A DNA stretch of 64,000 bases, taken from Nyssa sinensis. Taxonomy: Eukaryota > Streptophyta > Magnoliopsida > Cornales > Nyssaceae. This document shows positions 6,240 to 58,262 of this stretch, piece by piece. A model generated the notes under the pieces. The model saw only the letters and a program-made list of their open reading frames with translations. It was not told where the DNA came from and did no database searches. Location: the NCBI GenBank assembly GCA_008638375.1, contig CM018038.1:12347740-12411739 (forward strand), read 5' to 3'. The position numbers and the translations under genes were made by a program. Position 1 is the stretch's first letter. Every line of letters starts with the position of its first letter.

Positions 6240-6244
6240 AATTT

Positions 6245-6262: not shown

Positions 6263-6342
6263 GACGGTAGAAGAATCAGTAGATAGTTTTTCTTTTCAAC
6301 AGTTTGTAAAGGCGGTAACTTCGTTCCCTTCTTTTTACTTAC

Positions 6343-6344
6343 TG

Positions 6345-6404
<60 letters not shown>
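6343..6404 (+). repeat. (ATT)n microsatellite in the Athila leader
   Basis: About 20 uninterrupted ATT units lie between the primer site and gag, followed by a T-rich tract up to about 6490. Its purity fits the young age of the element. Confidence 0.95.
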
Positions 6405-6405
<1 letters not shown>

Positions 6406-6506
6406 TTTTATTATTTTTTTTATTTTATTTTTATTTCTAGTTATTTATTTATTCATTTTATTTTATTTCTTCTTTTTTTTTTTTTTTATTATTATTGTCA
6501 TCTTGC

Positions 6507-24905: not shown

Positions 24906-24933
24906 AGAAAACACTTTATGGAAAAGAAATTCT

Positions 24934-30595: not shown

Positions 30596-30654
30596 TGAGA
30601 AGGGAGATGGATCTGCTTGTAAATAGAGCACTTGGTGGAAAGGACGATAGTCGT

Positions 30655-30672
30655 TTCCCACAGACGGCGCCA
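30655..30672 (-). other. Primer binding site of Tat copy 1
   Basis: The minus strand reads TGGCGCCGTCTGTGGGAA three bases after the 5' LTR. The first nine bases match the complement of the tRNA-Asp 3' end and the rest do not, so the primer is not certain. Confidence 0.8.
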
Positions 30673-30675
30673 AAC

Positions 30676-31243
30676 TGATGCTGTACTTTTTGGCCGAAGC
30701 AAGGTCGGTAATGATCCGTACTCCGCTGCCTGAGGAATACTCAAAGAAAAAGGATCAGAGGGCCACCGGATTTGCTCCGGCAGTAGCCGCTGTAATGCTT
30801 ACGTCAATAAACTGAATTGAAAGACTGTAGTGTAAGCCAAATAATGAGCATGAAAATAATAGCGTACCTTAGGGTTTAATTTATAGGCAATGGCAATCCT
30901 AAGTTGATTAGGATTTGGAGCCGTGAATATAAGGATTTGATCATCGGAGAGCGGCAGTTACCAAATTAGATACTGCGCTCGAGAGATATCTGTGAATAGT
31001 AGTTTCCTTGTCGAAGACTGATTCTTTATCCTCTGCTCGGTAGGGTACTTAAGGCGGTGATAAGCTCTGAACCCTGTTGAAGGCTCTGAAGGTCTATGCT
31101 CATACCTGTAAGCTCTGGATCTATGCCAAGATGAATGAGTTTTGGAGGCTACGTAGCTCATCAAGCTCGGAAGGATCGAGTTTTGGTAGGTCTGAACCTA
31201 CACGTGTCTCACGGAAATTGGCTGGTTGGTTTGTGGTATATCA
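30676..31243 (-). repeat. Tat copy 1, 5' LTR
   Basis: 568 bp, reading TGATATACCACAAACC to AGTACAGCATCA on the minus strand. It is followed on the plus-strand side by CCATG, the target duplication. A TATAAATTAAACCC core-promoter-like motif occurs in it, as in the other Tat copy. Confidence 0.93.
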
Positions 31244-33448: not shown

Positions 33449-33982
33449 ACAGCAAAGGGATGTATATATTTTACAACAGCTTTCTTGTAAAATTGACCTT
33501 AAATCATGAGTGGTGTTTTATATTTCATGCATGTATTTTTAAAAACATTTTTTTAAAAATATCTTTTCAAAAAACACTTTTAAAAGTTTATTTTCAAGAA
33601 ATGTTTTGTGCGTATTCCTGAATTTTTTGAAAGTGTCTTTTCAAAAAATTATTTTTACAGAAAATTATTTTTCAAAATTTTCAAATCATCTTTTAAAAAT
33701 GATTTTATCATTAAAAATATTTTTTCAAAAAATACTTTTTAAACAATCATAAACTAATAAATAAATTAAAATTAATCATAATTAAAAAATAATTTTTTTC
33801 CATCATAATCTCCGATTTAAGTCCCTTCCTGGATGTTTCAAATGAAAATGTAAACATAAAAAGGCCAAAATTCCTATGTACATACTGAACTCCTTATCAG
33901 ATAAAGTATATAAAAATAAAATAATAAAATAGATAATTTTGTTATTTTAAAAAAAAAAATTGACGAAGGAGGGTATATATAT
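33449..33982. other. AT-rich spacer left of the pararetrovirus locus
   Basis: No gene seen. It has many runs of TTTTAAAAA and TTTTCAAAAA types and ends in GTATATATAT right at the viral junction. Confidence 0.7.
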
Positions 33983-34128
33983 CCCTCGGCCATTAAGGAT
34001 TGTGATAAGCCTATTGCCCTAAACGTTCTCATAGCTTGGCGGGACTTACAGCGGCTCCTATAATCTGTGGACTTCTGAGGTGGTGTGGGCTAGGTGCAGG
34101 ACCAGGTAAGAGAAAGAAATAATAAACA
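33983..34128 (-). other. Inverted piece of the pararetrovirus leader
   Basis: This segment is the reverse complement of the leader seen at about 42520-42645 and matches the inverted copy at about 47881-48010. It switches to the forward leader at a shared AATAATAAA. It is the left end of the viral locus. Confidence 0.85.
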
Positions 34129-34188
34129 GTACAGTTAGTCCAGAAAAAGAACAGTAAATTTTGAACAATGTAGACAATTACACCCAGA

Positions 34189-37100
34189 ATGAGTCGACTA
34201 TTCAGATCCAGCTCATCTGCTTCTTCTTCCTCTTCTCTTCCCTCAATCCCTGACACAGTTAACAGTGAAGACTACTAGGTTAGTCTCGACAGTCAGCCCC
34301 TTAGGTTCTGGAGAATCCCTAAGGTCCCAGTTAGTAAGATTTACCATACCACCTCTTGGTTAGGTACATCTGCCTTCTCTAGTAGCCTCAATGTTAAGAC
34401 TGTAGAAAAAACATATGTCATTGACAGAGAAAGAGTTCAATGTCAATTGTTTAACCAGTCTACCATACGTGACCATATCAGCAAAGGTTACAACTTCATC
34501 CACTTAGGCTTAGTCTAAGTAGGAATCAATCCCCTTGTTAGAAAAAGATTAGATGCCACAGTCCTTTTAGCCCTTAGAGATGCCCGTTATCTTAGATGGC
34601 ATGACTGCCTCTTAGGTCTAATGCAGTCTCCCATGCATCAAGGTCCAGTTCACTTTGATTGCTACCCAGACTTTTTAGTAAGCCTCCAAGACTCTCATAT
34701 CTTGGATATCCTCACCTTAGACATCCAAACCTCAGGCACCCTCATGAAAGGAGGAACTCGTGAGTTAGCCTTAGTTTACATAATATACTATAAGTGCTTC
34801 AAAACCAATTTGAATGTACTTGCAGTAAACAGAAGCCCTAAGGATAAAACCATCCTTATTCAGTCATATGCTGAAGGATCTGACATTCAGGTCCCTAAAG
34901 CCATCCAATGGTCCGAAGTAACCCCTCTTGCAGAATGGATCATTGAAAATGAAAACTATCAAATTCCCAAGCAATCTGCCAAACAAGTTGACAATATTCA
35001 GCAGCTCTAAGATGGAACTGTTAGGATTAGTTTCGACAACAGTAGGTTTCGACCTATTCTTCCTCCTTCCCCTCAAATTCCTCTCAGTCGAACCAGATCT
35101 GAACTCTTTACACCTAGATCTGAACAGTTAGCACCCAGCTCATCCCCCAGAAGAGATTTACATCTAGACCTCCAAGGTTTAAGGTTAAAATCTCAAGTTA
35201 GCACTCCTTGTTATAAAACCCAGTCACAAGTTGTAGAAGAAGATGAATCAATCACTTCTTCCAGTCCTACAGACTTTGACGCTCCAGTTGACCATGGACT
35301 CAATACACTAAGTAAAGAGTTCATCATAGATACGAGTAACCTCATTAAAGAATTCTTGTCCGACGCCAATACGGCAAAACTGGAACATTTTAAGGTTACC
35401 CACACCAGAGACCAAAAGTATGAAATACGAGAAAAGTGGAAAGCTTTCATGATAGATGAACAGCGCAACATTCTATTTTTTGAATATTTCCCAGCCATTT
35501 ATAACCAACCTACCATGGCACCAATCACTATGGTTAGATGGTTAAAAATAGATAAAACCACTGTCTCAGCTAGTCATCCTTTAGCAGACACTATAGTGGT
35601 ACAACACAACGGTAAGGAAGTAGTTGCCTCTCCATTTAAGATCTTTCCTCAGGAAGAAACCCCTAGGAAGATCGTTGAACAGAACAACTACACCAACCAG
35701 TGCCTCATCACTATAGGCAAACAGTTAGATAAAATTGAGAAATTTGTAGAGCCTAAACAGCCTTCAATTCCTCAAACTTCTTACTCTTCACAGTTAGAAA
35801 AGCCTTTGATTAAGTTACCAGATCTTAGTTTGTCCAAACCCGTCTATCCCAAAGATGCAACCACTAGGGATATAGTTAACCAAATGTTTAAGGAATTAGC
35901 CAACACAGTAAAGAAGGAAGAATCCAGTACTTCTTCCAAGATAGTCGAAACAATGGCCAAGCCAACTCCTTCAGACAAACCGGATACTTCAGAATCCTCA
36001 ACTGATGATGATGAAGAATGTCCTCAACTCCTCCCCATAGAAAGTCATCTTTAGGGTCTTTCTATCAGTCGTCTTCCCCGGCCTAGATCTTTCCATAGGT
36101 ATAGTAGACCTACTCCTCCAGATCTCCAGGTTGAGAACCACACCCAGTTTTCTGTTCAGTCAGATCATCTTTATGAATAACATAGATGGTCATTTAGAAC
36201 AGGAAATCCTCAACAAACTCAGCCACATGGTTATGATAGCCAACTTCTACATAGAGAAGAACAACACTTTTCAAGATAATATAGTCAAACTCCTCACTCT
36301 AGGTTTCACAGGAAAACTTCTCACTTGGTGGGAAAAACATCTCAGTCAAGAAACCAGAGAATCCATCATTCAGGCAATTAAACGTGATCCAGAAGGAAAC
36401 CTAGTTTTTGACGAAACCATAGGTAGAGCAGAACCTGATGGCGTCAATACCCTCATCTACACCATTACCAAACATTTCATCGGAACTCCTAGTCACGTAA
36501 CCGCTAGGATTCATGATCAGTTATCCAACCTTCGTTGTCCAACCCTTAGTGACTTTAAATGGTACCAGGAAGTCTTCTGTTCCAGAGTGATGTTACGAGA
36601 TGACAGTGACTCACCATTCTGGAAAGAAAAATTCATTAATGGCCTCCCTAGTCTTTTTGCCCATAAGATTAGAGACGTTCTCAGTAAAGACACCGGAGCC
36701 ATAGACTACCCTAGTCTCACTTACGGTGATATCATTTGCATTGTTCGCAAAGAAGGTATGTGGATGTGCATTGATATGAAAATCAGTAGCCAAGCCTCTA
36801 GGAACAAGAAACAAGCCAAGTATGAATTAGGCAATTTTTGTGTCCAGTACGGCTTACCTTCCATTGCTCCATCCAAACGAAGATCACACAGACATAAGTA
36901 GGATAGTCATCCTAGTTCCAGTCATAGATCTCGTCATCATTATCATCGCAAACACAGGAAGAATCACCACCAAGGTGAAACCAGCAAACCTTCCTGTTCT
37001 CGCGATTACCACAAGAACAATCGAAAAAAGAAAACTTCTACCAGTAAGAACATTTCCCGTAAAGCTACATCCACGGATGCATGCTTCAAATGCGGCAAGA

Positions 37101-39783
37101 AAGGTCATTTCCAGTCAGACTGTAAAGTCAAACAGCTAGTCAATGCCCTTCAAGGCACTTCAGATCAGAAACAGGAATTGCTTAGGATCCTTGAACTCAG
37201 AAACACAGATAGTGAACCCTCTGATTCTTCGTCCTATAGTTCTGATCATAGTGAAAATGAGATAGATCAGTTAGACCAGTCTTCTAATTTAGAAACCTCA
37301 TATCACACAGCCAATCCACCTGTTAAGATAAGATGTTCAAATAGTTGCAATCGCAGTTGTTGCAAAACAGTCAATGTCCTCACTAAACAGGAAGAACTCC
37401 TCATAGATCTAATCAACAAGTTGGAAGATCCAATCAGCAAATCTCAGTACCTAAGTCAGTTTCATAATTCTTTAGGCACTGAACCCAGTACATCTTCTCC
37501 AGTTATCCCCTCCAAACGTTCAATCCAAGTAAGCAAAATCTTCGATAAATTTACTGCACCCAGACTAGTAACTATTCAGGATTTACAATTTGAAGTTAGC
37601 CAAACCAAGAAAGAAATTTCTAGGTTAAATCAGTTAGTCCTCCATCTAGGAACCCGTTAGGATTCACTAGAACAGAAAGTTGACAGTCAACTTACTCCCC
37701 CATTAGAACCAGTACCATCTGATGATGATATCGGACCAACCGATGAAGTCAATCCTTTCTCTGACCTCCCTTCCTCTAGTCAGCCCAGTCCTTCCCAGGA
37801 TCCATATGATCAAGAAAAGGTTTTGGAAGCACTCACCAAGATTGATTTTTAGAAATGGCGACGTCCAGTTAAAATCATAGTATGTGATGAGTTTGAGTTT
37901 GAGGCAGTCGCTCTTATTGACTCAGGCGCAAATTTAAAATGCATCCAAGAAGGAATCATCCCTACCAAATACTTTGAGAAAACCAAAGAGCGTCTTACAT
38001 CCGCCAATGGTTCCAGCATGAACATTCAGTATAAATTATCCAATGCCCATGTGTGCCAGGATAAAGTTTGTTTCAAAACTCCCTTCGTCTTAGTCAAAAA
38101 CATGTTTGACAAGGTCATATTAGGGAACCCATTCATGTGTCTCTTATACCCTTTTACCACAGATAGCCAGGGTATAACAACCAGAACATTTGGTCAAACA
38201 GTCAGATTTTAGTTTGTTAGAAATCCTCAGTCTCGAGAAATCAACTCTCTTCAGGATGCCTTTATCAGACGATCAGTTAGTCTTCTTTCTAAGAAAAAAT
38301 CCCATGTCGATTTCCTCGTAGAAGAAATCCAGTTTAAAAAGGTAGAACAACAGCTTCTAAATCCTTCCCTTCAGTTACGGATTAGCCAGTTTGAGTCCCT
38401 CCTCAAACAAGAAGTTTGTTCTGACCTCCCCACAGCTTTTTGGCATAAGAAACAACACATTGTCCATCTTTCTTATGTCAAAGACTTCAGTGAAAGAAAC
38501 ATACCCACTAAAGCCAGACCTATCCAGATGAATCAAGCTTTAATGGAGTTATGTCGGTTAGAAATCAACCAGTTGCTTAGCAAATAGATCATCAGGCCTT
38601 CCAAGTCACCTTGGTCTTGTTCTGCTTTCTATGTCAACAAGAATGCCGAAATTGAGCACGGTGTTTCTCGGTTAGTCATCAATTATAAACCATTGAACAA
38701 AGTCTTAGAATGGATCAGGTACCCCATTCCCATTAAACGAGACTTAGTCAATAGGTTACACAAAGCAACCATTTTCAGTAAGTTTGACTTGAAGAGTGGA
38801 TTTTGGCAAATCCAAATTCATGAATTAGATAGATACAAAACAGCATTCACTACTCCCTTTGGTCATTACGAATGGAATGTAATGCCTTTCGGTCTCAAAA
38901 ATGAACCCGGTGAGTTTCAGAATGTCATGAACGACATCTTCAATCCATTCTCCAACCATATCATAGTTTACATTAATGATGTCCTCAACTATTCAGACTC
39001 CATTGATCAGCATTGGAAACATTTGCATTCGTTTCTTAATGTTATCAAAAGAAATAGTTTAGTCCTTTCTACCAGCAAGCTCAAGTTGTTTCAAAATTCA
39101 GTTAGATTCTTAGGCTTTGATATTTCATATGGTCAAATCAAGCCTATCCAACGGTCTATCCAGTTTGAAGATAAATTCCCAGATCAAATATTAGATAAAA
39201 CTCCGTTGCAACGGTTTTTAGGATCTTTGAATTATATTTCAGATTTCTATCCTAACCTCCGTTCTCATTGCAAGCTTTTATTTGATTGTCTTCGCAGTAA
39301 GCCCTCTCATTGGACTCCTGCTCATACAGCAATTGTCCAATCAGTTAAAAAATATGTCAAGACTCTTCCTTGTCTTAGTATCCCTTCCCCTTCAGCTTCT
39401 AAAACAGTCCAGACAGATGCCTCCGACGTTGGTTATGGTGGCATTCTTAGTCAATAGTTAGGTCCAGGTTCTCCTGAACAGATTATCTGTTTCCACTCTG
39501 GAATCTGGAATACCACCCAGTTAAATTATAGTACTATTAAAAAAGAGATTTTATCTTTCGTACTCTGCATCAGTAAGTTTCAATCAGATTTACTAAACCA
39601 AAAGTTTTTAGTAAAAATTGATTGTAAAACTGCAAAGCATATTTTAGAAAAAAAATATGTTAAAAACATTGCATCCAAACAGATTTTTGCACGTTGGCAG
39701 GCCATTCTCTCGGTATTTGATTTTGATTTCCAGTATATACCTGGCGAGAATAATAGTTTACCTGATTTCTTAACTCTGTGAAT
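34189..39783 (+). pseudogene. Copy A ORF1 polyprotein: movement, capsid-like, protease, RT, RNase H
   Basis: Starts at ATG 34189 (MSRLFRSNS). In order: movement-protein domain (to about 35200), a charged linker, a capsid or gag-like domain (about 36131-36900), zinc knuckle CX2CX4HX4C at 37082-37123, protease with DSGA at 37919-37930, RT from about 38640, then RNase H (QTDASD near 39412) ending in an IPGENN-type motif and a stop at 39781. Many in-frame stops interrupt it, for example at 34276, 36052 and 38585. The RT active site reads YIND instead of YIDD, so the second catalytic Asp is lost. The only RT and RNase H of the locus are in this copy. Confidence 0.82.
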
Positions 39784-39797
39784 TTTTGTAGCCCAAA

Positions 39798-41103
39798 AAT
39801 GAGCTGGAGGAGAGACAAGCAACAACAGTTAGCCCTTTCCTCCGGGAAGAAACCCACAGTTAGTTCGGTCTTAAGACCACCAGCTCCCAATCAGCCAACT
39901 CTTTCTCTATCCTAGGGCAGTCGATTTGCTATTCTTGGCAGCCTGATGCGTCCTAACTACAGTTTGCCTTCCCCAGTTAGTGGCTCTTTGAGCCTTCCCA
40001 ATTATCGGTCAGCCTTGGCCATAATTCCCCCTAGTCCATATGAGATCACAGACCCTTTTGATTCCTCCAAGGAACAGAAGATCGTCCCAATAAGACCTCC
40101 AGTTCGGACTCCTTCTTCCCCCTATCTTAAAAAGTCATACTCAGTGAACATCTTCTTCATTGAGCCTAGCCAGAGTTCAATCCAAGACCCATGGATTCTT
40201 GCTACCAGTCAATTCCCTCCAGGATGGCATTTCATTCCCCGTCATCCTTCCAAGTCAGTCAAATGGTATAAGGCCATTTTTCTTCATACCAATTCAGCAC
40301 GGTTTGAAGACATTCCCAGCAAGTAGGATCCCAGTCAGATCCTTTACCAAAAGTTTGTTATTGTTAAGTTCATTTCACAGAAATCATGGGGATCTCACCC
40401 TTACCAGCTACGAGATCTTCCAAACTCTTTAGTGCAGTATTCATACTTTGACTACATTGAAGCTTTCAGCAAGTCTCTGTATCAATCAGCCGATCATTCG
40501 TGGTTCCTCATGTTTGATCACAAATTCAAATGTCAGATTCCCAGTTGGTTCAGTGAATGGTGGAGAAAATTTGGTATTATTCCAGAGCTACTTCCATCAA
40601 CACTCCAGTCAGCCATGCAATACTTTGCATCAGTTTATCAACCAGATCAGCATGCAGCATAGTTCCCTATCATCCTTTTCATGGCCAGCAAATACAAAAT
40701 ACCATGGATAATGAAATGGAACTATGCAATTAATAATAATATTGTAACCAGAGAATTTTCAGTTAAGTGGTGGGATAAACTTAATTGTGACAAGTTTATT
40801 TCTTTCATCAATAAAGATTACCCCTTACCAACAACACAACAAGCAGCAAGCCAGCCCATTGCACATAGGACCTGATCCACTTCTAGTATGGATCCTACCC
40901 TTTTGCAACGACAATCCAGAGAAAAGCTAAAAGCATTAGCTCGACAGCTCATTATCCATGTCTCACAGATGGGAGATGATCCCGAGACCTAGTCAGACGC
41001 AGAATCCAACCATCCATTGCAAACAAGTGCAGTAGATGATGAATTCAGCCAAGATCCTTATGCTTTAGATGATGACTTCGATCCTTTTCGTATCATCCAG
41101 TAA
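39798..41103 (+). pseudogene. Copy A ORF2, unknown function, broken
   Basis: Begins with ATG 39798, 15 nt after the ORF1 stop, and runs to the stop at 41101-41103 (FRIIQ). A Pro/Ser-rich N-terminus is followed by a Trp/Phe-rich block (WFLMFDHKFKC, WFSEWWRKFGIIPELL) and an acidic C-terminus. In-frame stops occur, for example at 40660. All three copies keep the central block. I do not recognise a function. Its position after the polyprotein matches the extra ORF of some caulimovirids. Confidence 0.65.
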
Positions 41104-42337
41104 ACCAAGGCATCATTACATCAGCTTTTCAGCTAGCACTATTCATGAACAGTACTCTCGTGACAGACAAGATAGTATTCATGAACAGTAAAAAGTCAAC
41201 ACTATTCATGAACAGTACCCGCTCGATCATCATGATCACCAACATGCGGATACTTTTCACCTCAGTAAAAGCATTTCACTTTCCGGGATTCCCGCAGCAT
41301 ATCCAGCCAGCCAGCATCCAATGCTCTTCTTCCTCTATATATTGGACGCTCCTCTTCAGTTATCAGCAGGCTTCAGAAGCTTAGTACAACCACATTTCTG
41401 CAAGTTCATATACTTGAGAGAATTTCATATAGCATTCAGTTCAATGCCTTTAAATTCAATCCTGTATTCAGTTAGCCTTATTTTCTCAGTTAGCCAGGCT
41501 TTTTAAGCCTTCAATTTGTAACTGTATGTTGTATTTTCATTAATACAATTCAGTTTTCAGTTTGCAAATCTTATTTTTGCATTATTATCCCAGTTTCCAT
41601 ATGGAAGATTTTACCTCCTCTCCTAGCATGCATATAGTTAATTTTTATTTACTTCCCACATCTCTCTCCTTCTCCCCCTTCGGTAGAATTTATTTCTTCT
41701 TCCCTGCTTCCGCCCTCACTGGCTCGGTCAGTCCCCTTATATCCCGCAGCATATCCCGCCAGCCAGCTAGCATCCAATGCTCCTCTTCCTCTATATATTG
41801 GACGCTCCTCTTCAGTGATCAGCAGGCTTCAGAAGCTTAGTACAGCCACAGTTCTGCAAGTTCATATACTTGAGAGAATTTCATATAGCATTCAGTTCAA
41901 TGCCTTTAAATTCAATCATGTATTCAGTTAGCCTTATTTTCTCAGTTAGCCAGGATTTTTAAGCCTTCAGTTTGTAACTGTAAGTTGTATTTTCATTAAT
42001 ACAATTCAGTTTTCAGTTTACAAATCTTATTTTTGCATTATTAGCCTTTAAATTCAATCATGTATTCAGTTAGCCTTATTTTCTCAGTTATCCATGCTTT
42101 TTAAGCCTTCAGTTTGTAACTGTAAGTTGTATTCTCATTAATACAATTCAGTTTTCAGTTTGCAAATCTTATTTTTGCATTATTATCCCAGTTCCCATAT
42201 GGAAGGTTCTACCTCTTCTCCCAGCGTGCCTACAGTTAATTTTTATTTACTTCCCACATCTCTCTCTTTCTCCCCCTTCTGTAGAATTTATTTTTTCTTC
42301 CCTGCTTCCGCCCTCGCTGGCTCGATCAGTCCCCTTA
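41104..42337 (+). promoter_or_regulatory. Pararetrovirus intergenic region with duplicated promoter
   Basis: It contains three copies of TATTCATGAACAGTA (41138-41220), a TATA box CTATATATTGG at 41335, and AATACAATTCAG poly(A)-like motifs. A block of about 450 bp is present twice (41290-41740 and 41742-42337), so there is a second TATA at about 41791. The second block has a further 142-bp internal duplication (41902-42043 and 42044-42185). The inverted copy has a single, simple version. Confidence 0.8.
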
Positions 42338-42350
42338 TGGTATCAGAGCC
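42338..42350 (+). other. Pararetrovirus primer binding site (Met-tRNA type), copy B
   Basis: TGGTATCAGAGCC, the usual caulimovirid minus-strand primer site, lies at the end of the intergenic region, 413 bp upstream of ORF1. Confidence 0.9.
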
Positions 42351-42762
42351 ATTTGAGATCCATACTTGTTGAAACAATCTACACATCAGTAGTGATCAAC
42401 ACAACATGGTGAAATTGGCCATGAATACATCCATTCATTTCTTTTGCAATTCTTTAGATTGTACTCTGTTTACTCTTCTCTTTCTTCTCTCTCTGTACTT
42501 GTTTATTATTTCTTTCTCTTACTTGGTCCTGCACCTAGCCCACACTACCTCAGAAGTCCACAGACTATAGGAGCCGCCGTAAGTCCCGCCAAGCTAGGAG
42601 AGCGTTTAGGGCAATAGGCTTATCACAGTCCTTAATGGCCGATAGTAGGTATGTTGAAGAAGGTATGACAGACCCAACCAGGTTTGAGCAAGATAATAAA
42701 CAGTACAGTTAGTCCAGAAAAAGAACAGTAAATTTTGAACAATTTAGACAATTACACCAAGA
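42351..42762 (+). other. Pararetrovirus leader, copy B
   Basis: About 410 bp between primer site and ORF1 with several short upstream ATGs, as is usual for caulimovirid leaders. It has a C-rich, structured-looking centre (42520-42645), which is the segment found inverted at the left end of copy A. Confidence 0.7.
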
Positions 42763-45103
42763 ATGAGTCGACTATTCAGATCCAACTCATCTGCTTCTTC
42801 TTCCTCTTCTCTTCCCTCTATCCCTGACACAGTTAACAGTGAAGACTACCAGGTTAGTCTCGACAGTCAGCCCCTTAGGATCTGGAAGATCCCTAAGGTC
42901 CCAGTTAGTAAGATTTACCATACCACCTCTTGGTTAGGTACATCTGCCTTCTCCAGTAGCCTCAATGTTAAGACTGTAGAAAAAACATATGCCATTAACA
43001 AAGAAAGAGTTCAATGTCAATTGTTTAACCAGTCTACCATACGTGACCATATCAGCAAAGGTTACAACTTCATCCACTTAGGCTTAGTCCAAGTAGGAAT
43101 CAATCCCATTGTTAGAAAAGGATTAGATGCCACAGTCCTTTTAGCCCTTAGAGATGCCCGTCATCTTAGATGGCGTGACAGCCTCTTAGGTCTAATGCAG
43201 TCTCCTATGCATCAAGGTCCAGATCACTTTGATTGCTACCCAGACTTTTTAGTAAGCCTCCAAGCCCCTCATATCTTGGATATCCTCACCTTAGACATCC
43301 AAACCTCATGCACTCTCATGAAAGGAGGAACTCGTGAGTTAGCCTTAGTTTACAGAATATACTATAAGTGCTTCAAAACTAATTTGAATGTACTTGCAGT
43401 AAACATAAGCCCTAAAGATAAAACCATCCTTATTTAGTCATATGCCGAAGGATCTGACATTCAGGTCCCTAAAGCCATCCAATGGTCCGAAGTAACCCCT
43501 CCTGCGAAATGGATCATTGAAAATGAAAGCTATCAAATTCCCAAACAATCTGCCAAACAAGTTGACAATATTCAGTAGCTCCAAGATGGAACTGTTAGGA
43601 TTAGTTTCGATAACAGTAGGTTTCGACCTATTCCTCTTCCTTCCCCCCAAATTCCTCTCAGTCGAACCAGATCTGAACTCTCTACACCTAGATCTGAATA
43701 GTTAGCACCCAGTTTATCCCCTAGAAGAGATTTACATCTAGACCTCCAGGGTTTAAGGTTAAAATCTCAAGTTAGCACTCCTTGCTATGAAACCCAGTCA
43801 TAAGCTATAGAAGAAGATGAATCAGTCAGTTCTCCTAATCCTACAGACTTTGATGCTCCAGTTGACCATGGACTCAATACACTAAATAAAGAGTTCATCA
43901 TAGATAAGAGTAACCTCATTAAAGAATTGTTGTCCGACGCCAATACGGCAAAACGAGAACATTTTAAGGTTACCCACACCAGAGACCTGAAGTATGAAAT
44001 ACGAGAAAAGTAGAAAGCTTTCATGATAGATGAACAGCGCAACATTCCATTTTTTGAATATTTCGCAGCCATTTATAACCACCTGCCACGGCACCAATCA
44101 CCAAGGTTAGATGGTTAAAAATAGATAAAACCACTGTCTTAGCTAGTCATCCTTTAGCAGACACCATAGTGGTACAACACAACGGTAAGGAAGTAGTTGC
44201 CTCTCCATTTAAGATCCCTCCTCAGGAAGAAACCCCTAGGAAGATCGTTGAACAGAACAACTACACCAACCAGTGCCTTATCACCATAGGCAAACAGTTA
44301 GATAAAATTGAGAAATTTGTAGAGCCTAAACAACCTTCAATTCCACAAACTTCTTCCTCTTCACAATTAGAGAAACCTTTGATTAGGTTACCAGATCTTA
44401 GTTTGTCCAAACCTGTCTATCCCAAAGATGCAACCGCTAGGGCTATAGTTAACCAAATGTTTAAGGAATTAGCCAACACAGTAAAGAAGGAAGAATCCAG
44501 TACTTCTTCCAAGACAATCTAAACAATGGCCAAGCCAACTCCTTCAGACAAACCGGATACTTTAGAATCCTCAACTGATGATGATGAAGAATGTCCTTAA
44601 CTCCTCCCCATAGAAAGTCATCTTCAGGGTCTTTATATCAGTCGTCTTCCCCAGCCTAGATCTTTCCATAGGTATAACAGACCTACTCCTCCAGATCTCC
44701 AGGTTGACAACCACAGCCAGTTTTCTGTTCAGTCAGATCGTCTTTATGAATGGAACAAAGATGGTCATTTAGAACAGGAAATCCTCAACAAACTTAGCCA
44801 CATGGTTATGACAGCCAACTTCTACATAGAGAAGGACAGCACTTCTCAAGATAATGTAGTCAAACTCCTCACTCTAGGTTTCACAGGAAAACTTCTCACT
44901 TGGTGGGAAAAACATCTTAGTCAATAAACCAGAGAATCCATCATTCACGCAGTTAAACATGATCTAGAAGGAAACCCAGTTTTTGACGAAACCATAGGTA
45001 GAGCAGAACCTGATGGCGTCAATACCCTCATCTACACCATTACCAAATATTTCATAAGAAGTCCTAGTCACGTAACCGTTAGGATTCATGATCAGTTATC
45101 GAA
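42763..45103 (+). pseudogene. Copy B ORF1 remnant: movement protein and start of capsid-like region
   Basis: Starts MSRLFRSNS. It is open for 224 codons to a TAG at 43435, which is a glutamine codon in copies A and C, then is interrupted repeatedly (near 43576, 43699, 44013, 44599). It ends at the internal deletion in the capsid-like domain. It aligns with copy A throughout. Confidence 0.82.
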
Positions 45104-46060
45104 CCCATCTTCTTTATTGAGCCTAGTCAGAATTCAATCCAAAACCCATGGATTCTTCCTACCAGTAAATTCCCACCAGGATGGCATTTCATTCCCCATC
45201 ATCTTTCCAAGTTAGTCAAATGGTATAAGGCCATTCTTCTTCATACCAATTCAGCACGGTTTGAAGACATTCCCAGCAAGCAGGATCCCAGTCAGATCCT
45301 TTACCAAAAGTTTGTTATTGTTAAGTTCATTTCACAGAAATCATGGGGATCTCACCCTTACCAGCTACGAGATCTTCCAAACTCTTTAGTGCAGTATTCA
45401 TACTTTGACTACATTGAAGCTTTCAGCAAGTCTCTGTATCAGTCAGCCGATCATTCGTGGTTCCTCATGTTTGATCACATATTCAAATGTCAGATTCCCA
45501 GTTGGTTCAGTGAATGGTGGAGAAAATTTGGTATTATTCCAGAGCTACTTCCATCAACACTCCAGTCAGCTATGCAATACTTTGCATCAGTTTATCAGCC
45601 AGATTAGCATGCAGCACAGTTCCCTATCATCCATCTCATGGCCGGCAAATACAAAATACCATGAATAATGAAATGGAATTATGCAATTAATAATAATATT
45701 GTAACCAGAGAATTTTCAGTTAAGTGGTGGGATAAACTTAATTGTGACAAGTTTATTTCTTTCATCAATAAAGATTACCCTTCACCAATAGCACAACAAG
45801 CAGCAAGCCAGCCCATTGCACATAGGACCCGATCCACTTCCAGTATGGATCCTACCCGTTCGCAAGGACAATCCAGAGAAGAGCTAAAAGAACTAGCTCG
45901 ACAGCTCATGATCTATGTCTCACAGATGAGAGATGATCCCGAGACCCAGTCAAACGCAGAATCCAACCATCCATTGCAAACAGGTGCAGTAGATGATGAA
46001 TTCAGCAAAGATCCCTATGCTTTGGACGATGACTTCGATCCTTTTCGTATCATCCAGTAA
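45104..46060 (+). pseudogene. Copy B ORF2 remnant
   Basis: Enters ORF2 at the deletion junction and keeps the Trp-rich central block (45389-45607, stop at 45605). It then continues from 45668 to the stop at 46058-46060 as an open 130-codon C-terminal part (MKWNYAINNN to FRIIQ). Confidence 0.7.
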
Positions 46061-46132
46061 ACCAAGGCATCATTACATCAGCTTTTCAGCTAGCACTATT
46101 CATGAACAGTACTCTCGTGACAGACAAGATCT

Positions 46133-47763
46133 AGTAACCTAATCAAAGATTTTTCTAACTGTGAAGAGGAAGAAGTTTGAGGAATTGAAGGCTGTTTAGG
46201 CTCTACAAATTTCTCAATTTTATCTAACTGTTTGCCTATAATGATGGGGCACTGGTTGGTGTAGTTGTTCTGTTCAACGATCTTCCTAGGGGTTTCTTCT
46301 TGAGGAGGGATCTTGAATGAAGAGGCAACTACTTCCTTACCGTTGTGTTGTACCACTATGGTGTCTGCTAAAGGATGACTAGCTGAGACAGTGGTTTTAT
46401 CTGTTTTTAACCATCTAACCTTGGTGATTGGTGCCATGGTAAGTTGGTTATAAATGGCTGGGAAATACTCAAAAAATGGAATGTTGCGCTGTTCATCTTT
46501 CATGAAAGCTTTCCACTTTTCTCGTATTTCATACTTTTGGTCTCTGGTGTGGGTAACCTTAAAATGTTCTTGTTTTGCCGTATTAGCGTCGGACAAGAAT
46601 TCTTTAATGAGGTTACTCATATCTATGATGAACTCTTTACTTAGTGTATTGAGTCCATGGTCAACTGGAGCGTTAAAGTCTGTAGGACTGGGAAAAGTGA
46701 CTGATTCATCTTCTTCTACAGCTTGTGACTAGGTTTTATAGCAAGGAGTGCTAACTTGAGATTTTAACCTTAAACCTTGGAGGTCTAGATGTAAATCTCT
46801 TCTGGGGGATGAGCTGGGTGCTAACTGTTCAGATCTAGGTATAGAGAGTTCAGATCTGGCTCGACTGAGAGGAATTTGAGGGGAAGGAGGAGGAATAGGT
46901 CGAAACCTACTGTTGTCGAAACTAATCCTTACAGTTCCATCTTGGAGCTGCTGAATATTGTCAACTTGTTTGGCAGATTGCTTGGGAATTTGATAGTTTT
47001 CATTTTCAATGATCCATTCCACATGAGGGGTTAGTTCGGACCATTGGATGGCTTTAGGGACCTGAATGTCAGATCCTTCAGCATATGACTGAATAAGGAT
47101 GGTTTTATCCTTAGGGCTTCTGTTTACTGCAAGTACATTCAAATTGGTTTTGAAGCACTTATAGTATATTCTGTAAACTAAGGCTAACTCACGAGTTCCT
47201 CCTTTCATGAGGGTGCCTGAGGTTTGGATGTCTAAGGTGAGGATATCCAAGATATGAGGGTTTTGGAGGCTTACTGAAAAGTCTGGGTAGCAATCAAAGT
47301 GAACAGGACCTTGATGCATGGGAGACTGTATTAGACCTAAGAGGCTGTCATGCCATCTAAGATGACGGGCATCTCTAAGGGCTAAAAGGACTGTGGCATC
47401 TAATCCTTTTCTAACAAGGGGATTGATTCCTACTTGGACTAAGCCTAAGTGGATGAAGTTGTAACCTTTGCTGATATGGTCACGTATGGTAGACTGGTTA
47501 AACAATTGACATTGAACTCTTTCTTTGTCAATGGCATATGTTTTTTCTACAGTCTTAACATTGAGGCTACTGGAGAAAGCAGATGTACCTAACCAAGAGG
47601 TGGTATGGTAAATCTTACTAACTGGGACCTTAGGGATTTTCCAGATCCTAAGGGGCTGATTGTCGAGACTAACCTGGTAGTCTTCACTGTTAACTGTGTT
47701 AGGGATAGAGGGAAGAGAAGAGGAAGAAGAAGCAAATGAGTTGGATCTGAATAGTCGACTCAT
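46133..47763 (-). pseudogene. Copy C movement-protein region of ORF1
   Basis: The best preserved movement domain of the locus: open for 344 codons from ATG 47763 down to a TAG at 46731-46729, then in frame again to the junction. The Ser-rich N-terminus is followed by the region aligned to copies A and B. The family (30K-type movement proteins) helps virus spread through plasmodesmata. The TAG corresponds to a glutamine codon in A and B. As a truncated part of a polyprotein it is a relic. Confidence 0.8.
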
Positions 47764-48175
47764 TGTGGGTGTAATTGTCTAAATTGTTCAAAATTTACTG
47801 TTCTTTTTCTGGACTAACTGTACTGTTTATTATCTTGCTCAAACCTGGTTGGGTCTGTCATACCTTCTTTGACATACCTACCCTCGGCCATTAAGGACTG
47901 TGATAAGCCTATTGCCCTAAATGCTTTCCTAGCTTGGCGGGACTTACAGCAGCTCCTATAGTCTGTGGACTTTTGAGGTGGTGTGGGCTAGGTGCAGGAC
48001 CAGGTAAGAGAAAAAAATAATAAAGAAGTACAGAGAGAGAAGAAAGAGAAGAGTAAACAGAGTACAATCTAAAGAATTACAACCAAAATGAATGGATGTA
48101 TTCATGGCCAATTTCACCATGCTGTGTTGATCACTACTGATGCGTAGATTATTTCAACAAGTATGGATCTCAGAT
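47764..48175 (-). other. Pararetrovirus leader, copy C
   Basis: Same leader as 42351-42762 on the minus strand, uninterrupted. Confidence 0.8.
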
Positions 48176-48188
48176 GGCTCTGATACCA
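48176..48188 (-). other. Pararetrovirus primer binding site, copy C
   Basis: TGGTATCAGAGCC on the minus strand, at the end of the intergenic region. Confidence 0.9.
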
Positions 48189-48750
48189 TAAGGGGACTGA
48201 CCGAGCCAGTGAGGGCGGAAGCAGGGAAGAAGAAATAAATTTTACAGAAAGGGGAAAAGGAGAGAGATGTAGGAAGTAAATAAAAATTAACTGTATGCTT
48301 GCTGGGAGATGAGGTAAAACCTTCCATATGGGAACTGGGATAATAATGCAAAAATAAGATTTGCAAACTGAAAACTGAATTGTATTAATGAAAATACAAC
48401 TTATAGTTACAAACTGAATGCTATATGAAATTCTCTCAAGTATATGAACTTGCAGAAATGTGGCTGTACTAAGCTTCTGAAGCCTGCTGATAAATGAAGA
48501 GGAACGTCCAATATATAGAGGAAGAGGAGCATTGGATGATGGCTGGCTGGATATGCTGCGGGAATCCCGGAAAGGGAAATGCTTTTACTGAGGTGAAAAG
48601 TATCTGCATGTTGGTAATCATGATGATCGAGCGGGTACTGTTCATGAATAGTGCTGACTTTTTACTGTTCATGAATAGTATCTTGTCTGTCACGAGAGTA
48701 TGTTCATGAATAGTGCTAGCTGAAAAGCTGATGTAATGATGCCTTGGTTT
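48189..48750 (-). promoter_or_regulatory. Pararetrovirus intergenic region, copy C (single form)
   Basis: Contains the TATTCATGAACAGTA-type repeats, CTATATAT TATA box (48511-48518) and AATACAATTCAG motif in the same order as the region after copy A, but without its 450-bp duplication. Confidence 0.8.
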
Positions 48751-49845
48751 ACTGGATGATACGACAAGGATCGAAGTCATCGTCCAAAGCATAGGGATCT
48801 TGGCTAAATTCATCATCTACTGCACCTTTTTGCAATGGATGGTTGATTCTGCGTCTGACTGGGTCTTGGGATCATCTCCCATCTATGAGACATGGATCAT
48901 GAGCTGTCGAGCTAGTTCTTTTAGCTCTTCTCTGGATTGTCCTTGCAAAAGGGTAGGATCCATACTGGAAGTGGATCGGGTCCTATGTACAATGGGTTGG
49001 CTTGCTGCTTGTTGTGCTGTTGGTGGGGGGTAATCTTTATTGATGAAAGAAATAAACTTGTCACAATTAAGTTTATCCCACTATTTAACTAAAAATTCTC
49101 TGGTTACAATATTATTATTAATTGCATAGTTCCATTTCATTATCCATGGTATTTTGTATTTGCTGGCCATGAGAAGGATGATAGGGAACTGTGCTGCATA
49201 CTGATCTGGCTGATAAACTGATGCAAAGTATTGCATGACTGACTGGAGTGTTGATGGAAATAGCTCTGGAATAATACCAAATTTTCTCCACCATTCACTG
49301 AACCAACTGGGAATCTGACATTTGAATTTGTGATCAAACATGAGGAACCACGAATGATCGGCTGACTGATTCTGTAAATACAGAGACTTGCCAAAAGCTT
49401 CAATGTAGTCAAAGTATGAATACTGCACTGAAGAGTTTGGAAGATCTCGTAGCTGGTAAGGGTGAGATCCCCATGATTTCTGTGAAATGAACTTAACAAT
49501 AACAAACTTTTGGTAAAGGATCTGACTGGGATCCTGCTTGCTGGGAATGTCTTCAAACCGTGCTGAATTGGTATAAAGAAGAATGGCCTTGTACCATTTG
49601 ACTGACTTGGAAGGATGATGGGGAATGAAATGCCATCTTGGAGGGAATTGACTGGTAGCAAGAATCTATGGGTCTTGGATTGAACTCTGGCTAGGCTCAA
49701 TGAAGAAGATGTTCACTGAGTATGACTTTCTGAGATAGGGGGAAGAAGGAGTCCGAACTGGAGGTCTTACTGGGACGATCTTCTATTCCTTGGAGGAATC
49801 AAAAGGGTCTGTGATCTCATATGGACTAGGGGGAATTGTGGCCAT
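48751..49845 (-). pseudogene. Copy C ORF2 remnant
   Basis: Minus-strand ORF2 in two frames: 49700-49140 and 49428-49081, with the Trp-rich block and a small insertion (LYLQN) compared with copies A and B. The N-terminal part is lost at the deletion junction. Confidence 0.7.
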
Positions 49846-50360
49846 GGCTTATAATTGATGACTAACCGAGGAACACCGCGCTCAATTTCGGCATTCTTGT
49901 TGACATAGAAAGCAGAACAAGACCAAGGTGACTTAGAGGGCCTAATGATCTGTTTGCTAAGCAACTGGTTGATTTCTAACTGACATAACTCCATTAAAGC
50001 TTGATTCATCTGGATAGGTCTGGCTTTAGTGGGTATGTTTTTTTTACTGAAGTCTTTGACATAAGGAAGACGGACAATGTGTTGTTTCCTATGCCAAAAA
50101 GCTGTGGAGAGGTCAGAACAAACTTCTTGTTTGAGTAGGGGCTCAAACTGGCTAATCCGTAATTGAAGGGAAGGATTTAGAAGCTGTTGTTCTACCTTTT
50201 TAAATTGGATTTCTTCTAAGAGGAAATCGACATGGGATTTTTTCTTAGAAAGAAGACTAACTGATCGTCTGATAGAGGCATCTTGAAGAGAGTTGATTTC
50301 TCTAAACTGAGGATTTCTAACAAACTGAAATCTGACTGTTTGACCAAAAGGTCTGGTCGT
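49846..50360 (-). pseudogene. Copy C protease/RT boundary fragment of ORF1
   Basis: Aligns with about 38180-38690 of copy A. It includes the start of RT (LVINYKP) and ends at the internal deletion. The right edge at 50360 meets a (TA)n tract. Confidence 0.75.
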
Positions 50361-51392
50361 TATATATATATATATATATATTATCAGATAAAATAAAAAA
50401 TGTCGATATAATTTTAAAAAATTTTTAAAAAATAATCTAATTATTAAAAAATTTAAAAAAATTAATTTAATTTAATTTAAACTAACTTTTAAATACAACT
50501 GATACTTGGTTTTTTTGAAAATGCACATGCACATTGTGAATTTGTTAAATATTTATTCCTTCAGAAAGTCAAAGTTGTCAGGCTTGGATTATAAGTTCAC
50601 TTTGAAGGCAGATTTTCTAGGTCCGGCCGGGCCTAACATTTAAGTTTGGAAATGAAATATGAATTCCAACGGTATTATTTTCTTTGATAGGGAAAAGTTC
50701 GTGAAAAATTTGATTTAAAACAAGTGGTTGAAATTTTTTTAAAGCAGTTAAAATATAAATAACTTAAATTAAAATTAATTTTTGAGTGAAAATAGTTGTT
50801 TTATATATTATATTCAAAATCATCCTACTGTGATCTAAAATGACCAAACAAATTGTACTTGAGAACTCTCGAGCTTTTAGTATTTAAGCTAAATTTTTTA
50901 GGTAAGACATTTAGTTTGACGTAAATAGATTTGTTTCTAAATTTTCATAACAGCCCAATTTCTATTTATTCTGAATTTTTTTTATTTTTAAGATTTCTTA
51001 ATTTTTTAATTATAATAGGTTTAGTATAAAAAATTAATAAATTCTTATTTGGATTACTAATATCCTGAGATTATAAATATGATGTAAACAATCTTTATTA
51101 TTAATTTTTTCAATAATATTTTAATTTTAAAATTTGAGAATTTCTCCTTTTAGGTGAAGAGTCTGGCTCTTTTGTTTTTGATTTATAAGAAATTAAACGT
51201 ATTTAATTCTTCTTCATGTTTTTCGTATTATGTAAAAATCGTTTTCCAAAATAAGGCCAAACTACCACTTTCAAATTCTTTGACTGTGAGGCAATGAAGG
51301 ATGAGACGTCCCTCAATTTTTTTATTAAAAACATTTCTTATGCTTTTTGAAAATTCTTTTTAAATATATCTCTTAATTTTTATTTTTGCATC
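50361..51392. other. AT-rich spacer with (TA)n at its left edge
   Basis: No gene seen. (TA)n at about 50361-50382 directly borders the viral locus. The rest is AT-rich with no ORF or recognisable repeat. Confidence 0.7.
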
Positions 51393-51944
51393 TGATATAC
51401 CACAAAGTAACAGACTAGTCTTCATGTGACACGTGTAACTACTGATCAAATATAGCTTTGCCATCCAGAGCAGACTCAGCCATTCAAATCAGGCTTGGGC
51501 ACTAATCCTTCAGAACTCACAGTTCCTAGCACAGGGCCTTCAGAGCCTCCATTAGGGTTCAGAGCTCATCACCGCCCTGAATATCCTACCGAGCTGAGAA
51601 AAAGGAAACAGTCTTTAACAAGAAAACTGCCACTCACGGATATCTCTGAAGCGCAGTGTCCAACAAGGCAACTGCCATTCTCCGATGATCAAATCCCTAT
51701 ATTCAAGGCTCCAAATCCTAATCAACTTAGGAAAGCCAAAGCCTATAAATTAAACCCTAAGGTGCGCCTTTTATTTTCATGCTCATTCTTTGGTTTACAT
51801 TACAGTCTTTTAATTCAGTTTATTGACTTAAGCATCGGAGCGGCTACCGCCGGAGCCAATCCGGTAGCCCTCTGATCCCCTTTTGAGTGTTTCTCAGGCA
51901 GCGGAGTTTGAACCCCCCACTGAAAACTGAAAAGTGCAGCATCA
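51393..51944 (+). repeat. Tat copy 2, 5' LTR
   Basis: 552 bp, TGATATACCACAAAG to AGTGCAGCATCA. The second half, including TATAAATTAAACCC at 51744, matches the LTRs of copy 1 closely. The first third (U3) is diverged. The same family but a different subfamily is likely. Confidence 0.88.
51744..51751 (+). promoter_or_regulatory. TATA box in Tat copy 2 LTR
   Basis: TATAAATT within a stretch conserved between both Tat copies, about 200 bp before the LTR end. This is the likely core promoter. Confidence 0.55.
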
Positions 51945-51947
51945 GTT

Positions 51948-51965
51948 TGGCGCTATCTGTGGGAA
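51948..51965 (+). other. Primer binding site of Tat copy 2
   Basis: TGGCGCTATCTGTGGGAA, three bases after the LTR. It differs from copy 1 only where CCG became CTA, both changes expected from decay of a methylated CG. Confidence 0.85.
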
Positions 51966-52034
51966 ACGACAGTCGTTCTTTCCACCAAGTGCTCTACTTA
52001 CCAACGAATGCATCCTCCTTCTTACCGGAAGACC

Positions 52035-53798
52035 ATGGCTCCTAATCTCCGACCAAGAAAGAATGCTCAAAATCCTCAAAACTCTCAACCCTGGCCGCCT
52101 GCCGGACAAAGAATGGGACGAACAACTAATCCCATGCAACAAGAGCTTGACTTAGTCAAGCGACAAAACCAGTTGATGTAAGAGCAGCTTCTAGCCATGT
52201 TTAGAACTTTGGGGACGCTCACCCGGAATCAGGGAACCAATCCTTCGAATCCACCCGTCAACACGGCTGATTAAGGGGCACAACCTCCTACAGCCGCCCC
52301 GGACGGAAGACTCCATGAAGAGGCTCCCAATAGTCAACCGGTGCACCCCCAAGGCGCCACCCACGTTGGCAAAGACCTCCAACCATCAGCAGCTGCAAGC
52401 AGGGGCGTACCAACCTTTATTCCAGCCATCCACTATCGAAGCACCACCAGGGCCCCAACCCCGAGGGCTTCAGGAGCAAATCCCTCACCGCAAGAATCTC
52501 AACCGCAAACGGTTCCAACTCCTCCAACTCAAGAGCCTCAAGATACTATTCCGGCTGTAGGACCTGCCCATCCCACTCATATAAGAGCCGAAACTGCAAA
52601 GCAAGACTCGCAAGTCCCCCTCAAGGACCCCCGAAGAGCCGAAGAGGTTGTTGATTCTATGGACCGCACTGTTGGGATGAGAGGTATTCAAATTCCTCTA
52701 GAGCAGGACGAGCTAGCTAGGATGCTTGGAAGGCTTGCTACGCCGTTCACTCCTGCTATCATGGTTGAGGAAAGGCCGAGGAAGTTCATTGTTCCAAAGT
52801 TCACCCCTTATGATGGGACTGGGGACTCAGGGGACCATCTTTCTCATTACCAGCATACCATGGGATTACACGGGGCTTCTGACGCCTTCATGTGCCAAAC
52901 ATTCATTACTAGCCTCAAAGGCACAGCATTAAAATGGTTCCACCATCTCCCACTGAATTCAATCACCAGCTTCTATGAGCTCAGTAGACGCTTTCTAGAT
53001 AGGTTCATGACCAGCAGAAGGTTGAGGAAGTGCCCAGAATTCTTGTTTAAAGTAAAACAATCCAAAGAGGAGCCCCTCCGAAAGTACATTGCACGATTTA
53101 ACGCCGAGCTCACAGAGATTACAGACTGCAGTCCAAGCTTTTTAGTAGCTGCCATGACCTCTGGACTCGCGTAAGGAGGCTTCAAGGATTCTCTAACAAA
53201 AAGCCCTCCTACCAACATGGCTGCCCTCATGGATCGGGCAAGGAAATACATAAATCTGGAAGAAGCAAAGAGCCCTTCTTAGAAGACTAAAGAACAAACT
53301 CAACAGGATGACCAGAAGAAGGACTCCAGTACAAACAGAAAGAGGGACAGAAGCCCGGACAAAAGAACAGCCTCCAAAACCCCCAGCAACACTACTCTAA
53401 GGGGATTCACTACCTTCACTCCTCTAAATGCCTCCCTAACCCATATACTTCGGCAAGTCCGATCACATGAAAACCTTAGATGGCCAGAGCCGTTAAGAAG
53501 CGATCCCAACTACCGGGATATAAGCAAGTACTGTGATTTTCACAAAGACCATGGGCACGCAACTGACACATGCAAGACCCTTAAGCATGAAATCGAGCAG
53601 CTCATAAGAAGTGGACGACTGCGGGAGTTTGTCAGGCAGGACAGAAGGCAGAACCCCCGCAATGACAGACCCCAACAGAGAAGGCCAGACCCGAGGCCAG
53701 ACCAGAGGCTGGATCAAAGGCCAGACCAAAGGCCGGAGCAAAGGGAAGGACGGAATGGGCCCCAATAGCAGAACAATCAAGTCATCTTCGTCCTCCAT
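52035..53798 (+). pseudogene. Tat copy 2 gag
   Basis: Starts with ATG 52035 (MAPNLRPRKN). The open core is 52341-53174 (KFTPYDGTGDSGDHLSHY, ALKWFHHLPLNSITSFYEL), with a stop at 53172-53174. The Cys/His motif YCDFHKDHGHATDTC is near 53530. Several stops are CAG or CAA changes. It aligns with gag of copy 1. Confidence 0.85.
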
Positions 53799-57760: not shown

Positions 57761-57806
57761 AAATGCTTTCTTTCTCAAAATCTCTCCATCAAGTATTTTC
57801 AACTTA

Positions 57807-58262
57807 ATGTACAGACCTCCAGGTCTAGACCAGCGTATTGACTCCTAAAGCCTTGTATTCGTTACAAGTCTTTTAGGCCTGGTCCTCTCAAATGTATAGA
57901 CCCCCAGGTCTAGTCCAGCGTATTGACCCCTAAAGTCTTGTATTCGTTACAAGTCCTTTAGGCCTGGTCCTCTCAAATGTACAGACCTCCAGGTCTGGTC
58001 CAGCGTATTGACCCTTAAAGCCTTGTATTCGTTACAAGTCCTTTAGGCCTGGTCCTCTCAAATGCACAGACCCCCAGGTCTGGTCCAACGTATTAACCCC
58101 TAAAGCCTTGTATTCGTTACAAGTCCTTTGGGCCTGGTCCTCTCAAATGCACAGACCTCCAAGTTTGGTCTAGCGTATTGACCCCTAGAGCCTTGTATTC
58201 ATTACAAGTCCTTTAGGCCTGGTCCTCTAAATGCACAAACCTCTTGGTCTGGTCCATCGTAA
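57807..58262. repeat. Tandem repeat block, 85-bp unit, Tat copy 2
   Basis: Five full units and part of a sixth start at 57807, 57892, 57977, 58062, 58147 and 58231. Each begins ATGTACAGACCTCCAGGTCT or a variant with the AGACC-GGTCT dyad. It occupies the same place after integrase as the 30-bp block in copy 1, but the unit length differs. Confidence 0.92.

What the first reader, a model, noticed from the sequence alone, without database searches (positions are those of the whole stretch)
33983..50360. Rearranged endogenous pararetrovirus locus with three partial copies
Two copies head to tail and one inverted, with a movement-protein domain, no integrase, and circular permutation in copy C. 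This matches integration of circular or concatenated viral DNA. No copy is complete and RT is present only in copy A, with a mutated active site.
Basis: partly seen in the sequence, partly recalled or inferred. Interest (0 to 1): 0.75.

Follow-up and report, generated by a model that had tools for sequence, protein, structure and literature searches.

The report
Rearranged fossil florendovirus-like plant DNA
A stretch of plant chromosome holds three broken, joined-up pieces of an old plant DNA virus wedged into a TA-repeat; this is a well-known kind of viral fossil, with an unusually readable record of how the pieces were opened and stitched together.

Summary
Window 33983-50364 is an endogenous caulimovirid: partial copies A (+), B (+) and C (-), about 95-96% alike, with MP-CP-zinc finger-protease-RT-RNase H domains, a second ORF in another frame and two tRNA-Met primer sites. 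No integrase or LTR was found. Corrections: C keeps an N-terminal RT stub, and A, B and C are each opened at a different point of a roughly 7,977-nt circle. Copy A ends at the base before the primer site, where minus-strand DNA starts, so the A/B join is not seamless. Both ends abut TA repeats. ORF2 homology fits the proposed genus Florendovirus; an RT tree against reference genera could not be made. The copies mostly diverged after integration, perhaps 1.5-3.7 My ago with recalled rates. Best reading: several reverse-transcribed molecules, at least one linear at the minus-strand discontinuity, end-joined into a broken TA repeat. It is a new member of a known kind. B and C form a 2.3-kb inverted repeat that might feed siRNA; this was not tested.

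The parts
33974..33982 (.). TA repeat, left host flank abutting viral DNA
   Evidence: read directly; junction
33983..34126 (-). inverted 144-nt piece of viral leader; joins copy A with 10 nt of microhomology
34101..41740 (+). copy A: leader to the base before the primer site, about 95.5% of the unit; broken by stops and frame changes
34519..35010 (+). copy A movement protein fragment (PF01107)
   Evidence: E 4e-9
36041..36901 (+). copy A coat region (DUF7746, Caulimovir_coat_dom)
36902..37660 (+). copy A CCHC zinc knuckle region
37853..38212 (+). copy A aspartic protease (RVP, Peptidase_A3)
38588..39457 (+). copy A reverse transcriptase, YIND at the active site where most relatives have YIDD
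39458..39781 (+). copy A RNase H fragment
39916..40662 (+). copy A ORF2 region, in a different frame from RT
   Evidence: matches the C and B ORF2 pieces
41290..42338 (+). A/B intergenic region with partial duplication (about 450 nt) and a 142-nt tandem repeat; TATA motifs at 41336 and 41792
42338..42349 (+). tRNA-Met primer-binding site TGGTATCAGAGC
41742..46130 (+). copy B: intergenic, leader, MP, part of CP, 3618-nt deletion at 45105/45106, ORF2
42748..43437 (+). copy B movement protein fragment
45092..46060 (+). copy B ORF2 pieces
46119..46130 (.). head-to-head B/C junction, about 5 nt of microhomology
46119..50364 (-). copy C: RT N-terminal stub, 1317-nt deletion at 49844-49849, ORF2, intergenic, primer site, leader, MP, CP start
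48177..48188 (-). tRNA-Met primer-binding site in copy C
46729..47778 (-). copy C movement protein, longest open MP frame (349 aa)
49081..49665 (-). copy C ORF2 piece, homologous to Prunus and Lonicera proteins
50361..50381 (.). (TA)10.5 repeat, right host flank abutting viral DNA

Best explanation
The locus is a single, old germline capture of several caulimovirid DNA molecules, most likely of the proposed genus Florendovirus. Shown: each of the three segments is a different opening of the same roughly 7,977-nt circle (A from position 356 to 7977; B from about 7527 through 1 to 7403; C from 4410 through 1 to 2071); B and C have internal deletions; at the internal joins no more than about 1 base fits neither parent (read by eye); both outer ends touch TA repeats; copy A stops at the base before the tRNA-Met primer site. 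Inferred: a break in a TA microsatellite was filled by end-joined viral molecules. At least one of them was linear at the minus-strand discontinuity, because tRNA-primed minus-strand DNA begins at that base. The others were circles broken elsewhere. Joining used microhomology at some junctions. Afterwards the block behaved as non-coding DNA and decayed. The confidence below is for capture of caulimovirid DNA into a TA repeat by end joining; for the further step, several separate molecules with one linear at the primer site, I would say about 0.65.
For: Domains in caulimovirid order and no integrase domain in the 19 ORFs scanned; RT closest among solved structures to one recorded as 'Enzymatic polyprotein' (8r0s, which I recall as cauliflower mosaic virus), ahead of Ty3; primer sites; copy map and opening points; A ends at the base before the primer site while C runs through it, and by rough post hoc arithmetic the chance that 1 or more of 16 endpoints falls within 1 nt is 0.006; TA at both ends; microhomology of 10 nt and about 5 nt at two junctions. 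Differences per codon position are 54, 67, 56 pooled over the three (non-independent) pairs, dN/dS lies inside the shuffled neutral range for 3 of 3 pairs, and 85 of 134 polarised changes are C>T or G>A: decay after capture. Precedents: TA repeats beside florendoviruses (PMC4241990, passages), endogenous caulimovirids (PMC10377300, passages) and rice RTBV-like loci, whose ends also cluster in the intergenic region and at strand discontinuities (PMC526188, passages).
Against: The primer-site coincidence rests on one endpoint and was noticed after the fact. A seamless A-B concatemer with a later tandem duplication whose edge happens to fall there gives the same structure. Microhomology is absent or about 1 nt at the left end, at the 142-nt repeat and at the A/B join, and patchy at the two deletion joins. 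In the largest block the CG context has no raised C>T rate (2 of 94, against 15 of 291 for CHG and 33 of 1214 for CHH), which weakens a methylation reading of the decay. B has somewhat more private changes (A 44, B 56, C 34; chi-square p 0.066). In grass pararetroviruses discontinuity positions did not correspond well to recombination patterns between viruses (PMC5491270, passages). No empty site, no reads and no genus-level RT tree were available.
Confidence: 0.85

Rival explanations
1. A seamless head-to-tail concatemer integrated, and the intergenic duplication, the deletions and the inversion arose later by recombination in the chromosome. (This rival concerns only the assembly step of the best explanation, so the two odds overlap.)
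For: A and B are in tandem and C shares the same content; tandem arrays are known (PMC10377300 and PMC4241990, passages). All pairs differ by similar amounts (3.9-5.0%).
Against: The A/B join breaks at the base before the primer site and repeats about 450 nt. The duplicated intergenic units differ by about 4-6.5%, as much as whole copies, so that duplication is about as old as the capture. Later inversion does not by itself explain three different opening points.
Confidence: 0.25
2. The copies B and C are integrated defective or bipartite genome components (as described for some florendoviruses) rather than randomly deleted genomes.
For: B lacks the RT region and keeps MP, part of CP and ORF2, which recalls component B of the bipartite florendoviruses (PMC4241990, passages).
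Against: In B as it stands the coat frame and the ORF2 frame do not match across the deletion (coordinates), protease is also gone, and the deletions in B and C have different ends, so neither looks like a selected component.
Confidence: 0.08
3. An LTR retrotransposon that carries a movement-protein domain.
For: RT and RNase H are related to Ty3, and Ty3-type elements lie on both sides.
Against: No integrase domain in the 19 ORFs scanned, no flanking LTRs in the self-comparison, and the apparent 11-12-nt flank repeat is matched in 330 of 1000 shuffles. The primer site sits in an internal intergenic region of a tandem unit.
Confidence: 0.02

Closest known systems
Endogenous florendoviruses (proposed genus Florendovirus, Caulimoviridae; PMC4241990, passages)
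   Same: ORF1 order MP-CP-AP-RT-RH1, second ORF in another frame with homologues in Prunus and Lonicera, tRNA-Met primer site, TA repeats at the ends, greater-than-unit loci known
   Different: All three copies here are broken; genus placement by RT tree not possible; no protein listed or 27 bears the label florendovirus
Petuvirus (petunia vein clearing virus) and its endogenous copies
   Same: Large polyprotein with the same domains (PMC4241990, passages); tandem head-to-tail copies (PMC10377300, passages)
   Different: Petuviruses have one ORF (PMC7660458, whole text); here a second ORF in another frame is present
Endogenous RTBV-like sequences of rice (PMC526188, passages)
   Same: Rearranged, AT-repeat flanks, ends clustering in the intergenic region and at strand discontinuities
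   Different: Related to a different virus; here the end beside the primer site is a joint between viral pieces, not with host DNA
Inverted-repeat endogenous caulimovirids of tomato that make 22-nt siRNA (Valli et al. 2023, as described in PMC10377300, passages; the paper itself not held)
   Same: Rearranged copies in inverted-repeat form, able to form a long hairpin transcript
   Different: No expression or small-RNA data here

Membership tests
Caulimoviridae (endogenous) | Polyprotein domains MP, CP with zinc finger, AP, RT, RH in that order | tested here: met
   frames broken in copy A
Caulimoviridae (endogenous) | tRNA-Met primer-binding site in the intergenic region | tested here: met
   at 42338 (+) and 48177 (-); pattern recalled, same letters in PMC13308828 (passage)
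Caulimoviridae (endogenous) | Unit of 7.1-9.8 kb, no integrase | tested here: met
   about 7,977 nt; no integrase domain in the 19 ORFs scanned; size range from PMC7660458 (whole text)
Florendovirus (proposed genus) | ORF2 of about 45-58 kDa, genus-specific, in a different frame from ORF1 | tested here: inconclusive
   ORF2 present in another frame and homologous (41-42%) to 403- and 466-aa proteins of Prunus dulcis and Lonicera; intact length not measurable in these broken copies; the relatives are not labelled florendovirus; a second ORF alone is not diagnostic, since Wollendovirus 1 also has one (PMC13308828, passage)
Florendovirus (proposed genus) | RT groups with Florendovirus in a tree with reference genera | not testable with these tools
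   no relatives confirmed in viral contigs or genome contigs; the tree holds only database relatives, nearest named ones Prunus brigantina and P. armeniaca
Florendovirus (proposed genus) | Association with TA dinucleotide repeats (a bias, not a strict criterion; also seen in other endogenous caulimovirids) | tested here: met
Petuvirus | One ORF only | tested here: not met
   ORF2 in a different frame
LTR retrotransposon (Metaviridae) | Flanking LTRs, integrase, target-site duplication | tested here: not met

The most novel reading that the evidence does not exclude
The head-to-head B/C arrangement is a working natural hairpin. Transcription from the viral promoter of B (TATA motif at 41792) or of C (TATA motif at 48517, minus strand) would give RNA with a 2.3-kb stem (2184 of 2305 aligned positions paired, 41 of 113 perfect runs of 21 nt or more), a heritable source of antiviral siRNA. 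Separately, the end of copy A at the minus-strand start would make linear, unsealed reverse-transcription products a direct substrate for capture.
Probability: 0.15. Interest if true: 0.5.

Novelty: new member of a known kind. Interest (0 to 1): 0.27.

Why it matters
How caulimovirids, which lack an integrase, enter plant chromosomes is still described as speculative (PMC10377300, passages). This locus gives base-level breakpoints: three differently opened segments in what looks like one capture event, TA repeats at both ends, and one end at the minus-strand start. It is a useful data point for the view that unsealed replication products are captured as filler DNA, and a candidate siRNA-producing inverted repeat.

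Tried and rejected
A 12-base word that I saw in both host flanks looked like a target duplication; the longest common exact word counted by the script in the slices it took was 11, and 330 of 1000 shuffles reach it; local alignment of the flanks was matched in 109 of 500 shuffles, and beyond the TA repeats in 144 of 500, so it is dropped. Polypurine runs of 12 or more on the + strand of the copy A stretch (3 found) do not explain the copy breakpoints: the one at 34108 lies in the inverted leader piece beside the left join, the other two (35910, 37023) fall on none. Scans for relatives in viral contigs with the single RT protein and with the RT alignment, and in genome contigs with the alignment, gave pattern matches (2, 64 and 114 stretches) but no confirmed relative. 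tRNA genes: none found. The genome search was never reached, so the window's own genome was not searched for other copies.

Literature: five searches. I did not find a base-resolved endogenous florendovirus ending at the primer site in what I read, but apart from PMC7660458 (whole text) I read only passages, and most subscription journals are not held, so I make no claim that it is new.
Full report
What is there. Window 33983-50364 carries three related segments. Self-comparison gives: A 34101-36530 = B 42677-45105 (94.7%); A 40149-41173 = B 45106-46130 (95.6%); A 34101-35834 = C 47849-46119 (95.8%); A 38173-38693 = C 50364-49844 (94.8%); A 40011-41441 = C 49849-48412 (95.2%); B 45106-46130 = C 49711-48680 (94.6%); 42104-44407 (A/B intergenic and B) = C 48422-46119 (94.8%). 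The left end, 33983-34126, is a leader piece in the opposite orientation to copy A. Of 26 stop-to-stop ORFs of at least 100 aa in the block, 19 were scanned with Pfam: movement protein in all three copies, DUF7588 in A and C, DUF7746 in A and B, and coat domain, zinc knuckle, aspartic protease, RT and RNase H in A; no integrase domain in any of the 19. Eight of the 19 had no convincing family, among them the five ORF2 pieces and the C frame that holds the RT stub. The primer site TGGTATCAGAGC (recalled as the tRNA-Met complement; the same letters are given for a caulimovirid in PMC13308828, passage) occurs at 42338 (+) and 48177 (-).

RT state. In copy A the motif reads YIND. Among 119 other rows of the alignment 117 have D and 2 have N at that position. 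The best solved relative is 8r0s, 'Enzymatic polyprotein', E 3.7e-67, ahead of Ty3 chains. Copy C keeps an RT N-terminal stub without the catalytic motif (C 49844-50364 = A 38173-38693).

Which virus. The ORF1 domains run in one order and ORF2 lies in another frame. The C ORF2 piece found 2 relatives directly. A search from one of them found 29 proteins including itself, among them a Prunus dulcis and a Lonicera protein that match the window piece at 41% over 196 and 42% over 185 aligned positions. One Prunus armeniaca gene model joins RT with the start of an ORF2-like stretch (30% over 61 aa). PMC4241990 (passages) states that most florendoviruses have this two-ORF layout, that their ORF2 appears specific to them, that Prunus persica has such loci, and that TA repeats often flank them. 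A second ORF alone is not diagnostic, because Wollendovirus 1 of another clade has one too (PMC13308828, passage). RT relatives reach 73-74% over the full piece (1096 proteins with E up to 0.001 of 1524 candidates, 120 listed); the nearest named ones in the tree are Prunus brigantina and P. armeniaca. I therefore file it as an endogenous caulimovirid, probably Florendovirus, with the RT tree against reference genera not done.

How it was put together. Numbering from the primer site, the unit is about 7,977 nt. Copy A runs from 356 to 7977, B from about 7527 through 1 to 7403 with 3618 nt deleted, C from 4410 through 1 to 2071 with 1317 nt deleted. Each is the same circle opened at another place. 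Copy A's last base is the one before the primer site; the next segment restarts about 450 nt upstream, after about one base that fits neither parent. Copy C and the A/B region downstream run straight through the primer site, so the break is particular to A. Because tRNA-primed minus-strand synthesis starts there and the genome's discontinuities lie at the priming sites (PMC7660458, whole text; the exact base is my inference from base pairing), A looks like a linear replication product. By rough arithmetic the chance of such a coincidence is 0.006 for 16 endpoints, or 0.015 if only about five intergenic endpoints in about 1 kb are counted; it was noticed post hoc. Junction overlaps, read by eye: 10 nt at the left inverted joint, about 5 nt at B/C, about 4-5 nt of TATA at the right end, short and patchy at the two large deletions, about 0-1 nt at the left host joint, the A/B join and the 142-nt repeat. 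Against a role of the discontinuities, PMC5491270 (passages) reports that in grass pararetroviruses their positions did not correspond well to recombination patterns.

Host side. TA repeats touch both ends (33974-33982 and 50361-50381). The surroundings hold several Ty3-type elements, as described for florendoviruses in TE-rich regions (PMC4241990, passages). A plant snoRNA match and the named relatives fit a plant genome; the species is not known to me.

Age and fate. Over 2063 sites the pairs differ by 103 (AB), 81 (AC) and 93 (BC). Differences in the MP/CP block fall about evenly on codon positions: AB 21, 25, 22; AC 16, 20, 11; BC 17, 22, 23. dN/dS is 0.53, 0.88 and 0.49, each inside the 95% range of shuffles. 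In-frame stops in that block: A 3, B 5, C 1 of 440 codons. Of 134 polarised changes 85 are C>T or G>A. By context the C>T-type rate is, for CG, CHG, CHH: 2.1, 5.2, 2.7% in the large block; 5.7, 7.4, 4.2% in the second; 7.1, 6.9, 1.6% in the third, on 1 and 2 and 2 changes. The excess of C>T fits silenced non-coding plant DNA, but the low CG rate in the large block does not fit simple methylation decay. With recalled rates of 7e-9 and 1.3e-8 per site per year the divergence is 1.5-3.7 My. The similar distances fit one capture event, though B has somewhat more changes (p 0.066).

What it may do. Nothing needs to be assumed beyond inert fossil DNA. B and C are head to head; about 2.3 kb of each pair at 94.8%, with viral TATA motifs on both sides reading towards the join. 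Such inverted repeats in tomato and soybean give 22-nt siRNA (PMC10377300, passages). No RNA data were available, so this stays a hypothesis.

Verdict. Observation confirmed with corrections; interpretation supported and refined; a new member of a known kind.

Noticed in passing
window 6441-11936 (+): A single open frame of 1831 aa with gag, RT, RNase H and integrase domains and a weak protease match: a Ty3-type element that looks coding-intact.
   Followed up: no
window 7013-7120 (-): A full-length match to the plant snoRNA family snoR71 (47.3 bits) lies antisense inside that Ty3-type open frame; unexplained.
   Followed up: no
window 33969-33987: The left end reads GAGGG, TA repeat, CCCTC: a short palindrome spanning the host/virus joint, possibly from fold-back repair.
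   Followed up: partly
window 30025-31117 and 51511-52635: Two related stretches of Ty3-type elements in inverted orientation (72-78% alike) frame the viral block at some distance.
   Followed up: no
window 24508-24906 and 57806-58261: Tandem arrays of 30-nt (13.6 copies) and 85-nt (5.4 copies) units near the flanking Ty3-type elements.
   Followed up: no
P0010, P0096, P0118, P0121: Plant-virus-like proteins filed under archaeal and bacterial names in public databases, probably plant contamination of assembled genomes.
   Followed up: no
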